Shown in pieces: positions 24,885-33,549 of a stretch of 34,449 bases of DNA. Source of the DNA: a virus. Location of the stretch: positions 1-34,449 of the IMG/VR virus record IMGVR_UViG_3300032420_000056, one strand, 5' to 3'. Both the position numbers and the translations under genes were made by a program. Every line of letters starts with the position of its first letter. The first letter of the stretch is position 1. The notes beneath the pieces were generated by a model. That model searched no databases, had not been told where the DNA came from, and was given only the letters and a program-made list of their open reading frames with translations.

Positions 24885-25562
24885 CTATTTGGCGAGCAGG
24901 GGGATCAAGTATTCGACGCCATCCACAACAACGGGGAAAGCGGCAACGATTTCTGGCTGAACAAACGTCACCCCATCAGGGGCAAGACCAATCGGAGCGC
25001 CGCCCGTCTGGGAAGTCACCGGAGGATCGGCATGTGTGAGCGGGTTCGCCGCACTGGATTCAGCAGGCGGCAATGCTGCAACAGCAGCAGCAACAGCAGC
25101 AGTCAACTGTGCCTGAGTGACACCGCCACCTGCACCTGTGGCGGCTAGTTCGCCCACTTTGGCCCACAGGGTTCCGTTCCAGAACCAGCTAGTGCCGTCC
25201 TCTAGGAATGCAAACGCCGTGCCGGGAAGGTTACTCAATGGCAGGAACTCGTCCAATGTGGCAACACCAGTGGAGTACATCCCAACGAACACAGGTCTGC
25301 GTTCCACGAGATCGGTGCGTCGTTGCAGGTCTTGGATGGCCAAGTTCATGTCTTGTAGCGTTACCGGGTTAGTAATAGACCCGGTTCCCGGTGGGCGCAG
25401 CCAGGTGAAGACGGGTGGGCCTCCACGCGTGACTCGGGCGATAGCTATACCGTCTCCCGTGCTTTCTCCTGTGCTTTCCATTTCAGCTACTTCCGGCTCA
25501 ACTACTGGCGTTTCAACGCGCGTTGAAACCTGCTCACTCGCTGACTTCTTCTTGGCTGCCAC
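24885..25562 (-). CDS. modular tail-associated protein with C-terminal PVVV-G-Y-IP domain
   Basis: A 225-residue protein starting at GTG after GGAAAGG. The N-terminus is basic then acidic (MAAKKKSASEQVSTRVETPVVEPEVAEME). A small domain contains LEDGTSWFWNGTLWAKVGE, a W-NG-W motif shared with the two fibre proteins upstream. An Ala-rich helix follows (VTQAQLTAAVAAAVAALPP). The C-terminus FVQPEIVAAFPVVVDGVEYLIPLLAK recurs in a neighbouring gene and in the remnant beside the IS element. Likely a tail-tip or fibre accessory. Confidence 0.65.
   Translation of the reverse strand: MAAKKKSASEQVSTRVETPVVEPEVAEMESTGESTGDGIAIARVTRGGPPVFTWLRPPGTGSITNPVTLQDMNLAIQDLQRRTDLVERRPVFVGMYSTGVATLDEFLPLSNLPGTAFAFLEDGTSWFWNGTLWAKVGELAATGAGGGVTQAQLTAAVAAAVAALPPAESSAANPLTHADPPVTSQTGGAPIGLAPDGVTFVQPEIVAAFPVVVDGVEYLIPLLAK
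25510..25529. repeat. longest AACGCGCGTT palindrome (20 bp)
   Basis: GTTTCAACGCGCGTTGAAAC is perfect over 20 bp and encodes Ser-Thr-Arg-Val-Glu near the start of the gene. It is the best candidate for the full-length site of the family. Confidence 0.88.
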
Positions 25563-25564
25563 GG

Positions 25565-26086
25565 CTACCTTTCCTCTTGAACTTCTGACTGATCTTCAAC
25601 CGGGTAAAAAAAACGAATCTCCACACCGTTCTCGTCATACATGGCCCGAGGCGTGACAACTGCTGGCACAACCCACACATCACCAACATGATTCGCAATC
25701 GGCTCAACAGAAGAATGAAACGCAGTAACGAACCCATCAAGCCTGTCGGCCAACGAGGTATGAATCTGGGTGCTACTCACCCTGGCATCAACAACCTCAT
25801 TGATGATCAACGCTAGAGCTTTGACGATTCGGTTGTGATCCTCTGTATGGCCTGGATCACCAACCAAATGATCGTCATAAGGAATCTCGACACCGTTACC
25901 GGCAATCGGAAAGGCAAGCGCGGCCAACTCGTCAACAAGTTCAGCGAACGCAACAGGATTAGCGATCTGTGACATGCCGATCTGTGACATGCCGATCTGT
26001 GACATGCCGATCTGTGACATGCCGATCTGTGACATGCCGATCTGTTGCTCGCTTTGCTTACCGGCTAATGGCCGCGCTTTACCCAT
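25565..26086 (-). CDS. hypothetical tail-region protein with MSQIG repeats
   Basis: A 173-residue protein. After MGKARPLAGKQSEQQ, five exact IGMSQ repeats precede an ordered domain: ANPVAFAELVDELAALAFPIAG, DDHLVGDPGHTEDHNRIVKALALIINEV. A C-terminal part follows (VWVVPAVVTPRAMYDENGVEIRFFYP). The H-x9-H-T-E-D-H-N segment is striking and recalls phage tail proteins with GDPGHTxDHN motifs. I infer a virion role. The GTG of the next gene is 2 bp beyond its stop. Confidence 0.65.
   Translation of the reverse strand: MGKARPLAGKQSEQQIGMSQIGMSQIGMSQIGMSQIGMSQIANPVAFAELVDELAALAFPIAGNGVEIPYDDHLVGDPGHTEDHNRIVKALALIINEVVDARVSSTQIHTSLADRLDGFVTAFHSSVEPIANHVGDVWVVPAVVTPRAMYDENGVEIRFFYPVEDQSEVQEER
25964..26045. 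repeat. 15-bp tandem repeat, five perfect copies
   Basis: GATCTGTGACATGCC occurs five times without a mismatch (25964-26038), followed by a 7-bp partial copy. It encodes MSQIG repeats. Perfect identity implies recent expansion or ongoing copy-number change. Confidence 0.92.
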
Positions 26087-26103: not shown

Positions 26104-26454
26104 CTACTTCTTGGCCGCAGACTTCTTATTGGCCGCAGGCTTCTTCTCAGCAGCATCAGAATCAGCAGCAGCATCAGCATCAGAATCAGCAGCAGCAGAA
26201 TCAGCAGCAGCATCAGAATCAGCAGCATCAGAATCAGCAGCAGACCCGGAATCCCCTTCGGGATTTACACCTGCAGGTGCAGCACCTTCAATGTTGAAAG
26301 TGAATCCACGCTTCTGCACGAATCCTGGCGCATCTCCCTCTTCTTCTGACTTACCCGCATCAACAACATCGGCGCCATCTTTCTCAACCGGGGCTTCTGG
26401 GGCTTCTGAAACTTCTGGGAGTTCTTGCGTGACATCTTCCGATTCGTCCAACAT
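26104..26454 (-). CDS. acidic, low-complexity protein with histone-like Lys/Ala tail
   Basis: A 116-residue protein with start ATG 26454 after GGAGAGG. The N-terminal half is acidic (MLDESEDVTQELPEVSEAPEAPVEKDGADVVD). FVQKRGFTFNIEGAAPAG forms a short ordered-looking core. Then come ADSDAADSDAAADS repeats and a basic end, EKKPAANKKSAAKK. The repeat DNA is GCATCAGAATCAGCA-like and probably unstable. I do not recognise it; the basic tail resembles the N-terminus of a nearby gene (MAAKKKSAS). Confidence 0.6.
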   Translation of the reverse strand: MLDESEDVTQELPEVSEAPEAPVEKDGADVVDAGKSEEEGDAPGFVQKRGFTFNIEGAAPAGVNPEGDSGSAADSDAADSDAAADSAAADSDADAAADSDAAEKKPAANKKSAAKK

Positions 26455-26536: not shown

Positions 26537-26602
26537 CTACTCAGACACGGTGGGCAGAAAATACTTGCGACCATTAACGACCACCGGCATCACACCCGTA
26601 AA
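26537..26602 (-). pseudogene. 3' remnant of a tail gene next to the IS right end
   Basis: Twenty-one codons and a TAG stop read FTGVMPVVVNGRKYFLPTVSE. This matches the C-terminal motif of the gene upstream of the IS element (VGAIAVVVNGKVHYIPTL) and of the 24.9-25.6 kb gene (VAAFPVVVDGVEYLIPLL). The frame has no start and continues into the IS end, so the 5' part seems lost. Because the gene upstream of the IS still has its own intact motif, the remnant probably derives from a second, paralogous copy. Confidence 0.7.
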
Positions 26603-26606
26603 CCTA

Positions 26607-26627
26607 CCCCACGGATAAATCCGGGGG
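26607..26627 (-). ncRNA. IS right-end hairpin, probable 3' scaffold of the TnpB guide RNA
   Basis: In IS605-group elements the right end is transcribed with tnpB as the omega (re) RNA, and the flanking DNA beyond the end serves as guide. Here the hairpin starts about 10 nt after the tnpB stop, and the following bases (TTTACGGGTGTGATGCCGGT) would be the guide. Only the hairpin is seen; the RNA is inferred. Confidence 0.5.
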
Positions 26628-26636
26628 CTTTCTAGC

Positions 26637-27749
26637 TCAACTAGCAAGGTCCAACTCACCCGAAGGGAGCGAACCTTGTCTTACGGTCTCAGCACTAGCC
26701 AGGAGGGTTTCACCCTGGGCGAGAATCACTCTCGCAGCGTTGCGGTCACGTCCTTCGATCAAACCGCAGGACTCGCACACAAAAGTTCTTTCAGACAGGC
26801 TCAAGCGGTTCTTGGCTCTCGTTCCGCAACTCGAACACGTCATCGTTGTGTAGGCGGGCGGCACTATCACCACGATTCGGCCAGCCCGCTCGGCACGAGA
26901 AATCAGTTCAGTCTTGGTAATACCAATCGCGTTGTCGGCGGCCTTGCGCGCCATCGTGGACTTGGTAAGAAACTTCGGTTTGAAGTCCTCCACGGCGATC
27001 ACATCATTGTTGGCGACAACTTTCTTAGCCCACACGCGGGTCGTGTGCAGTCGTTGTCTAGCGACTTTCTTGTGCGTTCGGGCGGTTTGCAGTTTCGCGT
27101 GCTTGTACCGACGCGACCCCGCCTGGCCGCGAGACGGAGCGCGACGCGCCATACGGCGCTGATACTTAGCCAACTCTTTCGCCGCTTTGAGGCCGTAGAC
27201 GGGGGATTCCAGATCGTAGGCAGGGTCGGATGCGGTAGCAATGGTGGACACGCCCCAGTCGATACCGACGCTGTTCCCGGTAGCGGGGAGCTGTTCGTCC
27301 TCGACCTCGACAACGAAACTGGCGTACCAATGCCCGAGCGAGTCTCGGTAGACGCGGACGCTGGATGGTTCGTTGGGAAGTTCTCGATGCCACACGACGG
27401 GGATCGCCGGGCACTTCGCCAACCTGAGCCGACCCTCACGGATCGAGAATCCGTTAGCCGAGTAGGCGATGGACGGCAGCGAGTGTTTCTTCTTGATCTG
27501 GCGTGCAGTCTTGGGTTTGAAGTTGTAGATGACGGCGGATTGCGGGTCTTGCCCACCTTCTCTCAGCCACGAGTTAGCGGCGCGGGCAGCGGTCAGATCG
27601 GTTCCTTTGAGCAGGCGTCGGCTGCGGTCTTTCTTCGCGGCGACGAGTTCGTTCCACAACCAGCGGGTGCGGCCCCAGTCAGCGAGCAGCACACGTTCCG
27701 CCTGCACGCCGGGGCGCAGACGGTAGTTGTAGCGGACTGTGGTGCTCAT
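26637..27749 (-). CDS. tnpB: TnpB RNA-guided nuclease
   Basis: A 370-residue protein with an intact RuvC-like active site: Asp164 (VGIDWGVST), Glu254 (VIAVEDFKPKF) and Asp335 (IEGRDRNAARVIL). The zinc ribbon has Cys305/Cys308 and Cys325/Cys328 (CSSC...CESC). TnpB is the ancestor-like relative of Cas12, guided by RNA from the element end. The start at ATG 27749 follows GTAGGT and excludes 19 extra residues belonging to the left end. No frameshift or stop is seen, so it is probably active or recently acquired. Confidence 0.94.
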   Translation of the reverse strand: MSTTVRYNYRLRPGVQAERVLLADWGRTRWLWNELVAAKKDRSRRLLKGTDLTAARAANSWLREGGQDPQSAVIYNFKPKTARQIKKKHSLPSIAYSANGFSIREGRLRLAKCPAIPVVWHRELPNEPSSVRVYRDSLGHWYASFVVEVEDEQLPATGNSVGIDWGVSTIATASDPAYDLESPVYGLKAAKELAKYQRRMARRAPSRGQAGSRRYKHAKLQTARTHKKVARQRLHTTRVWAKKVVANNDVIAVEDFKPKFLTKSTMARKAADNAIGITKTELISRAERAGRIVVIVPPAYTTMTCSSCGTRAKNRLSLSERTFVCESCGLIEGRDRNAARVILAQGETLLASAETVRQGSLPSGELDLAS

Positions 27750-27798
27750 ACCTACAACTATAAGGCACTCCCTTAATCTCAGTATGGCGCTCAACTCT

Positions 27799-28299
27799 TC
27801 ATTCATCGGTTTGTGTTTTCAGAGTCGGAATGTAATGAACTTTTCCGTTCACAACTACGGCTATCGCACCAACAATTTCCGGCTGGGTGAAGGTTTCCCC
27901 ATCCTCTGACACGCCAACATCAACGCCGGTGGCCTGCCTGCCAGTAGCCAACATAAGCGTAGGTGGATCGCTGTCATCGGCACCAGGGCCGAGTTCAAGG
28001 ATCGCCGCCAACACACCCTCAAGAACGTTTTCGACTGCCCGCAACCGGCCCTCCACCGAATCCTTAGGAGGATTAGCGAACAACTCTTCCATAATGGCGA
28101 CTTCGGCTGCCAATTGAGCGGCCTCATGCTCAATCACCCACACCACCGCAGAACCCAAAAACATCAATCCCTCTTCGTGTGCGAAGGAATGGAATGGGTG
28201 ATCCTCCGACTGGGCGGAAACAATCATTTCAGGGACGTTAGACAGGCAGACCGAAGTCGAGGTGCTGCCGTAGTGAACGTAGAGGACGACATCATTCAT
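27799..28299 (-). CDS. tail accessory protein downstream of receptor-binding protein
   Basis: A 166-residue acidic protein starting at an ATGA overlap with the fibre gene. The N-terminal half (MNDVVLYVHYGSTSTSVCLSNVPEMIVS) leads to a helical stretch (EAAQLAAEVAIMEELF, RLRAVENVLEGVLAAILELG). The C-terminal motif GVSEDGETFTQPEIVGAIAVVVNGKVHYIPTL parallels the 24.9-25.6 kb gene. The C-terminal six residues (KTQTDE) adjoin the IS left end. A fibre chaperone or capping role is possible but unproven. Confidence 0.65.
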   Translation of the reverse strand: MNDVVLYVHYGSTSTSVCLSNVPEMIVSAQSEDHPFHSFAHEEGLMFLGSAVVWVIEHEAAQLAAEVAIMEELFANPPKDSVEGRLRAVENVLEGVLAAILELGPGADDSDPPTLMLATGRQATGVDVGVSEDGETFTQPEIVGAIAVVVNGKVHYIPTLKTQTDE

Positions 28300-32577: not shown

Positions 32578-33549
32578 TCAGCAGGTCAGGGCTAGACGTT
32601 CCCGCAACATCAACGCCGCGCGGGCATGAAGAGCACACGCCAAAGACTCCCGCAAACCCAACACCCGAGCAATGTCCCGCATCTTCATGCCCTGAACATA
32701 GTAAAAAAACACAATCGCCTTATGTACAGGCGGCAAACATTGAGCAGCCCCAGCCAAAGCGGCACAAGCGCGAGACATTTCCACAGACAAAGCAAAATCT
32801 GTACTCCCAGCATCAGCAACATCAAGAGACACGCCCGACTCGGACACGGCATCCAAACTCACGGAACTCTTATTCGCAGCCGACTTCGCTTGCGCCGTCA
32901 ACAAAGCCTCCACAGTGATACCCATCCGGTCAGCGACCTGCAGCGAACTAGGCTCCCTGCCAAGCTCACGCACCAAATCGTCATGCGCGACCTTCATCTC
33001 GCGGAGCCTGGCCCACACCCGCCTGGGCATCCATTCCTGTTGCCGTATGTGATCCAGCATGGCCCCGCGTACACGCACTGAAGCGTAAGCCTCAAACTTC
33101 ACACCCCTGTCAAGTTCAAACCTGTCAATTGCTTCAACTAGACCGAACTGCCCGTAGGAGAACAAATCATCAACCTCGAAATGGTTCGGAAGTTTCTGCA
33201 CAACCGAGTAGGCAACCTTTTTGACGAGTGGCTGATAGTGGACGAGGAGGGCGTCTCTGACGTGTACTGACCTGCAGGCGATGTAGGTTTCCCACACATC
33301 GCTCACGAGTACACCGTTGATGGTGGCTTCTGGTTTGCTGGGTTTACTGGGTGTGCTGGGTGTGCTGGGTTTGCTGCTGGGATGCGTAGCAACATCTGCT
33401 TCCAAAATTTCCGGACGGCGATCTTGGGCTGGGAGTTGGGCTGGGAGTTGGGCGGTTTCAAGCAGCATTCGGGAACCCCTACTGGTTGGCTGAAAACTGA
33501 ACTGAACATGATCATTCAACCAATAGGGGCACGTCGATGTGCCATGCAT
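32578..33549 (-). CDS. sigma-28 / WhiG-FliA family RNA polymerase sigma factor
   Basis: 323 residues from ATG 33549, or 296 from ATG 33468, which has AGGGG 8 nt upstream and may be the true start. The N-terminal 75 residues are low complexity (LPAQLPAQ, SKPSTPSTPSKPSKP). Region 2 spans about 85-173 with EVDDLFSYGQFGLVEAIDRFE and FEAYASVRVRGAMLDHIRQQEW. Region 3 spans about 175-225 and region 4 about 255-323, with the HTH MRDIARVLGLRESLACALHARAA. It would redirect host RNA polymerase to phage promoters, perhaps of the structural operon downstream. Promoter specificity is unknown. Confidence 0.93.
   Translation of the reverse strand: MHGTSTCPYWLNDHVQFSFQPTSRGSRMLLETAQLPAQLPAQDRRPEILEADVATHPSSKPSTPSTPSKPSKPEATINGVLVSDVWETYIACRSVHVRDALLVHYQPLVKKVAYSVVQKLPNHFEVDDLFSYGQFGLVEAIDRFELDRGVKFEAYASVRVRGAMLDHIRQQEWMPRRVWARLREMKVAHDDLVRELGREPSSLQVADRMGITVEALLTAQAKSAANKSSVSLDAVSESGVSLDVADAGSTDFALSVEMSRACAALAGAAQCLPPVHKAIVFFYYVQGMKMRDIARVLGLRESLACALHARAALMLRERLALTC
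33330..33455. repeat. tandem repeats in the sigma factor N-terminal linker
   Basis: Units of GGGTGTGCTGG type (33345-33375) encode SKPSTPSTPSKPSKP, and a 12-bp TGGGCTGGGAGT unit (33426-33452) encodes QLPAQLPAQ. The repeats lie outside the sigma domains. Confidence 0.7.

What the first reader, a model, noticed from the sequence alone, without database searches (positions are those of the whole stretch)
26537..27795. TnpB-only element inside the tail fibre cluster with intact nuclease residues
The RuvC triad and zinc ribbon are intact, and the right-end hairpin and an adjacent presumptive guide are present. The guide flank matches a tail-gene remnant, so the guide would target phage genomes that still have the intact paralogue. 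This could favour spread of the element among co-infecting relatives.
Basis: partly seen in the sequence, partly recalled or inferred. Interest (0 to 1): 0.6.

Follow-up and report, generated by a model that had tools for sequence, protein, structure and literature searches.

The report
Phage TnpB nuclease with tail-gene guide
A phage genome carries a stranded transposon gene for an intact-looking RNA-guided DNA cutter whose guide spells the end of a broken tail gene; it is an ordinary TnpB element in itself, but in two other phage groups the same kind of element carries guides that match sister phages, so it may help the element spread between phages.

Summary
tnpB (26637-27749, minus) is intact: RuvC D164/E254/D335 and four zinc cysteines are invariant with relatives 52-59% identical. 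A covariance model of the omegaRNA built only from 24 relatives finds the window copy full length (26598-26745, 111 bits, E about 1e-24). The flank after it encodes TGVMPVVVNGRKYFLPTVSE*, clearly the C-terminus of a paralogue of two tail-cluster genes in the window. Corrections: no tnpA, no left-end hairpin and no TAM remain, and the left flank is a different, complete gene, so the element is a stranded tnpB+omegaRNA. Its right end has one odd base (TTTAC; all relatives end in A). The family TAM is TCAT/TCAC, shown by empty sites in three genera. It is met elsewhere: Propionibacterium phages Anatole/B3/E6 share an identical element and sisters PFR1/PFR2 have TTCAT plus 17 guide bases; for mycobacteriophages Lizziana and Kimberlium (the latter in the tail module), checked sister phages have TTTAC plus 30/30 or 28/28 guide bases. 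Verdict: new member of a known kind; a homing-type role is plausible but unproven here.

The parts
26637..27749 (-). tnpB, 370 aa RNA-guided nuclease (RuvC D164, E254, D335; zinc ribbon C305, C308, C325, C328)
26598..26745 (-). omegaRNA scaffold overlapping the tnpB 3' end
   Evidence: covariance model R1 built without the window: 111 bits, E 9.5e-25, positions 1-148 of 148; covariation
26607..26627 (-). right-end hairpin CCCCCGGATTTATCCGTGGGG
26598..26602 (-). right-end terminus TTTAC; relatives end TTAA/TCAA, so the last base (C at 26598) departs
26578..26597 (-). presumptive 20-nt guide GGGTGTGATGCCGGTGGTCG
   Evidence: position fixed by the RE alignment and by empty sites of relatives
26537..26599 (-). 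tail-gene remnant TGVMPVVVNGRKYFLPTVSE*
27757..27762 (-). possible -10 box TATAGT of tnpB, at the same place in relatives
   Evidence: alignment by eye only
27799..28299 (-). left-flank gene, 166 aa, with its own complete C-terminus PEIVGAIAVVVNGKVHYIPTLKTQTDE
24885..25562 (-). second intact paralogue with C-terminus PEIVAAFPVVVDGVEYLIPLLAK

Best explanation
This is a stranded, non-autonomous IS200/IS605-type element reduced to tnpB plus its omegaRNA. Shown: intact nuclease residues, a conserved and covarying omegaRNA, a guide copied from the 3' end of a tail gene, and no left end or tnpA. Inferred: TnpB processes the 3' end of its transcript into an omegaRNA carrying GGGTGTGATGCCGGTGGTCG and cuts DNA holding TCAC/TCAT followed by that sequence, which means co-infecting sister phages whose tail gene is uninterrupted. 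Repair from the tnpB-bearing genome would then copy the element across, or the cut competitor would be lost. The element is therefore kept and spread by cutting rather than by transposition.
For: Nuclease residues. OmegaRNA model hit and covariation. Guide position and TAM from empty sites in three genera. Remnant homology. Absence of tnpA and left-end hairpin. Precedents: the Propionibacterium element is 1203/1203 nt identical in Anatole, B3 and E6 while the adjoining left 150 nt of Anatole and E6 are 59% identical; tnpB-less PFR1/PFR2 keep TTCAT plus 17 guide matches, and Doucette keeps the protospacer but has TTCCT as TAM. Mycobacteriophage element at two sites, with TTTAC plus 30/30 (Saal, Ruby, Daenerys) or 28/28 (Blexus, BuzzLyseyear, Rita, Pippy) in sister phages. 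A TnpB gene drive has been shown in plasmids (PMC11870625).
Against: No empty site or guide match was found for this phage. The last base of the right end is changed and makes TTAC, one base from the family TAM TCAC, which could invite self-cutting or mean the copy is decaying. The left side is rearranged, so the insertion itself cannot be rebuilt. The guide matches in other phages are what any precise insertion leaves behind, so they show opportunity rather than cutting. No expression or cleavage data.
Confidence: 0.55

Rival explanations
1. A dying remnant: a transposon hit the tail cluster, lost its left end and tnpA by deletion, and sits there without activity; the guide is only a scar of the insertion.
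For: No left end, no tnpA, left flank unrelated to the right flank, last RE base changed.
Against: The reading frame, all catalytic and zinc residues and the whole omegaRNA fold are intact, which is unexpected for a long-unselected gene; but a recent arrival would look the same.
Confidence: 0.33
2. Domesticated RNA-guided regulator or accessory (TldR-like) that controls a host or phage gene.
For: Some phage TnpB derivatives are nuclease-dead regulators (PMC13418256).
Against: The RuvC triad is complete and the guide corresponds to the adjoining tail-gene remnant.
Confidence: 0.04
3. Ordinary IS upkeep: TnpB cuts the healed donor site after excision so that the element is restored from a sister copy.
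For: Accepted role of TnpB in complete IS200/IS605 elements (established knowledge, not tested here).
Against: This copy has no left end and no tnpA in the window, so TnpA-driven excision is unlikely.
Confidence: 0.08

Closest known systems
IS1341-type (tnpB-only) element of Propionibacterium phages Anatole, B3, E1, E6
   Same: 56% identical TnpB, same omegaRNA fold and RE, no left-end hairpin seen, sits inside a phage gene, guide taken from the interrupted gene
   Different: The left flank still has TAM TTCAT and sister phages with the empty site are known; RE ends TTAA
TnpB element of mycobacteriophages Lizziana, Kimberlium, WillSterrel
   Same: Phage-borne TnpB-only element; one copy lies at the minor tail/tape measure junction; guide matches sister phages; omegaRNA model R1 matches
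   Different: About 30% identical TnpB, intact left-end hairpin, TAM TTTAC
Actinobacterial IS605 elements (Rhodococcus, Nocardia, Plantactinospora, Catellatospora)
   Same: 52-59% identical TnpB, RE and omegaRNA
   Different: Many have a divergent tnpA or a left-end hairpin, and a clean TCAT/TCAC TAM
ISDra2 TnpB (8bf8, 8h1j)
   Same: RuvC triad, zinc ribbon, guide after the RE
   Different: Distant (E 9e-25); TAM TTGAT according to general knowledge

Membership tests
TnpB (OrfB_IS605) RNA-guided nuclease | RuvC D/E/D triad | tested here: met
   D164, E254, D335 invariant; aligned to 8bf8
TnpB (OrfB_IS605) RNA-guided nuclease | Four-cysteine zinc ribbon | tested here: met
   C305, C308, C325, C328; Cas12f1-like_TNB 1.2e-16
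TnpB (OrfB_IS605) RNA-guided nuclease | omegaRNA overlapping the gene end and RE | tested here: met
TnpB (OrfB_IS605) RNA-guided nuclease | RNA-guided cleavage next to a TAM | not testable with these tools
   needs expression and an interference assay
Complete IS200/IS605 element | Y1 transposase tnpA | tested here: not met
   PF01797 absent from the window record; the controls ring
Complete IS200/IS605 element | Left-end hairpin | tested here: not met
   only the RE hairpin is found in the window; no hairpin seen upstream of tnpB
Complete IS200/IS605 element | TAM in the left flank and RE ending in TYAA | tested here: not met
   no TCAY near the tnpB start; RE ends TTTAC
IS1341-type tnpB-only element | tnpB with RE but no tnpA | tested here: met
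TldR nuclease-dead regulator | Lost RuvC residues | tested here: not met
Homing/gene-drive use of TnpB | Uninterrupted target with TAM in a co-occurring sister genome | tested here: inconclusive
   no record covers the locus; met for Propionibacterium phages and mycobacteriophages

The most novel reading that the evidence does not exclude
Phage-borne TnpB-only elements work as RNA-guided homing elements: each insertion reprograms the nuclease against the intact site of sister phages, and co-infection spreads the element, with target phages escaping by TAM mutation (as TTCCT in phage Doucette might be). The window element would be one more case, aimed at a tail gene.
Probability: 0.4. Interest if true: 0.65.

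Novelty: new member of a known kind. Interest (0 to 1): 0.42.

Why it matters
TnpB is widespread yet its benefit in elements that cannot move is debated. If stranded tnpB copies in phages are kept because they cut sister phages, that would explain their persistence and make a TnpB gene drive, so far shown on plasmids, testable with cultured phages that already exist.

Tried and rejected
Left copy of the guide: the Propionibacterium elements have an 8-nt repeat (CTGCGGCC) at both junctions, and the window has GGGAGTG upstream of tnpB versus guide GGGTGTG. A test over 80 loci showed no general enrichment, and L002 has GAGTGCTGTATAGTT where the window has GAGTGCCTTATAGTT, so this is probably element promoter sequence; rejected. 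Guide 18-mer hits in two viral contigs: unrelated contexts, chance. Resident paralogues as targets: too many mismatches, no TAM. Other self-targets with TCAY in the window: best 9/16. Rfam: no match. Neighbouring tail proteins as bait for relatives: none. No structure was predicted, because sequence alignment to solved TnpB already fixed the active site.

Full report
What is there. The window is a 34,449-base linear IMG/VR virus record. On its minus strand, in a cluster of tail-like genes, lies tnpB at 26637-27749, 370 aa; the frame stays open to an ATG at 27806, which overlaps the stop of the preceding gene. Pfam and PHROG assign it to OrfB_IS605/TnpB. In an alignment with 13 relatives the RuvC residues D164, E254, D335 and cysteines 305, 308, 325, 328 are invariant, and the protein aligns with ISDra2 TnpB over these sites.

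The guide RNA. The family's right end was defined from about 80 actinobacterial loci: a GC-rich hairpin followed by a short spacer ending TTAA or TCAA, then unrelated flank. Twenty-four relatives and the window give an omegaRNA alignment with 42 consensus pairs, 25 of which change on both sides; 93.5% of cells pair versus 34-46% when partners are slid, and no shuffle reaches the values. A covariance model built without the window finds the window copy over its full length at 26598-26745 with 111 bits, E 9.5e-25. The guide therefore begins at 26597.

One oddity. Every relative ends in A; the window ends TTTAC (note that the tally used a pattern that required TYAA or CTAA, whereas one search was read without that filter). 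The simplest reading is one substitution at 26598. It makes the right end resemble the family TAM (TTAC against TCAC) and equals the TTTAC TAM of the mycobacteriophage element, so self-cutting or a loss of normal end recognition is possible. Not resolved.

The flank. The sequence after the right end encodes TGVMPVVVNGRKYFLPTVSE and a stop (26537-26599). It matches the C-termini of the genes at 27799-28299 and 24885-25562 with BLOSUM scores 49 and 42, far above all other 20-mers of the window; the motif occurs three times in the window and in none of the other phage loci scanned. If the original TAM was TCAC, the empty site would read xTC ACG GGT GTG, placing a hydrophobic residue where the paralogues have Ile; this is inference.

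The missing half. The preceding gene, 27799-28299, has its own complete C-terminus, so it is not the left half of the interrupted gene. Upstream of tnpB there is no left-end hairpin, no TCAT/TCAC near the start, and no Y1 transposase in the record. The promoter region resembles that of relatives whose tnpA diverges from tnpB, for example L002, so the likely history is insertion of an IS605-type element followed by loss of tnpA, the left end and the 5' part of the target gene. Mycobacteriophage Lizziana also shows a rearranged left flank beside the same kind of element.

TAM and guide rule. Joining the flanks of three relatives and searching their genera gave uninterrupted sites: GCGTCAT|CTCAACCCC in a Rhodococcus-group genome, GTTCAT|TCCGCTC in the Plantactinospora genus and TGTCAT|TGCCTTC in the Catellatospora genus. 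So in this family the element sits 3' of TCAT/TCAC and the RE flank is the target sequence.

Is there a target phage? For this phage, none was found. An 18-mer of the guide occurs in two viral contigs in unrelated contexts; a degenerate peptide pattern gives none; neighbouring tail proteins have no relatives in viral contigs or phage records nor in records sharing the terminase. One record with an identical terminase is too short to reach the site. The resident paralogues match the guide at 13/20 and 10/20 without TAM, so the phage would not cut these.

The idea in other phages. The closest phage relatives are in Propionibacterium freudenreichii phages (56% aa). The stretch from the tnpB promoter to the RE is 1203/1203 identical between Anatolevirus (Anatole, B3) and Doucettevirus E6, whose left 150 nt are only 59% identical. 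Its guide is CTGCGGCCTCGATGACATGCGG. PFR1/PFR2 have the uninterrupted gene with TTCAT plus 17 matching bases; Doucette has the same protospacer but TTCCT. The authors of these genomes noted an IS1341-type transposase and could not find its ends (PMC5831693); the RE, the TAM and the empty sites given here supply the right end and the insertion point. In mycobacteriophages one 1331-nt element occurs at two sites (99.5% identical): in Lizziana, and in Kimberlium at the junction of minor tail and tape measure genes. Saal, Ruby and Daenerys carry TTTAC plus 30/30 guide bases for the first site; Blexus, BuzzLyseyear, Rita and Pippy carry TTTAC plus 28/28 for the second, and 346 records hold the flank. 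These matches show that sister phages are cuttable in principle. They do not show cutting, because any precise insertion leaves such a match behind; the identical Propionibacterium element on differing flanks is the better hint of transfer.

Mechanism and comparison. A TnpB gene drive has been demonstrated for insertion sequences on plasmids (PMC11870625), and nuclease-dead TldR regulators are known from phages (PMC13418256). The window element has an intact nuclease site, which speaks against TldR; it lacks what a complete IS200/IS605 element needs, so it is filed as an IS1341-type tnpB-only element. The best account is an RNA-guided nuclease kept by cutting uninterrupted sister genomes, at 0.55; a dying remnant is the main rival at 0.33.

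Verdict. Observation confirmed, interpretation partly supported, new member of a known kind, interest 0.42. The most useful outcome is that cultured mycobacteriophages and Propionibacterium phages offer a direct test of the homing idea.

Noticed in passing
window 25963-26045: Perfect 15-nt tandem repeat (CGATCTGTGACATGC) encoding repeated IGMSQ near the start of the 173-aa gene 25565-26086; its length could vary between phages.
   Followed up: no
window 26148-26252: Low-complexity repeat coding for Ser/Asp/Ala runs in the 122-aa gene just downstream of the remnant.
   Followed up: no
window 32578-33549: Phage-encoded RNA polymerase sigma factor (PHROG 351, E 3e-25).
   Followed up: no
L084, L085, L131, L132, L133: Propionibacterium phages: identical tnpB in two phage genera, 8-nt repeat at both junctions, a gap of about 34 nt starting roughly 22 nt into the guide flank relative to PFR1, and a TAM change (TTCCT) in Doucette.
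   Followed up: partly
L134, L135, L136-L142: Mycobacteriophage TnpB element at two sites, with exact TTTAC plus guide matches in tnpB-less sister phages; Lizziana's left flank is rearranged.
   Followed up: partly
L089: IMG/VR record IMGVR_UViG_3300009083_000051 encodes a terminase 100% identical to the window's; otherwise this phage lineage is known only through distant relatives such as Caudovirales GX15bay.
   Followed up: partly
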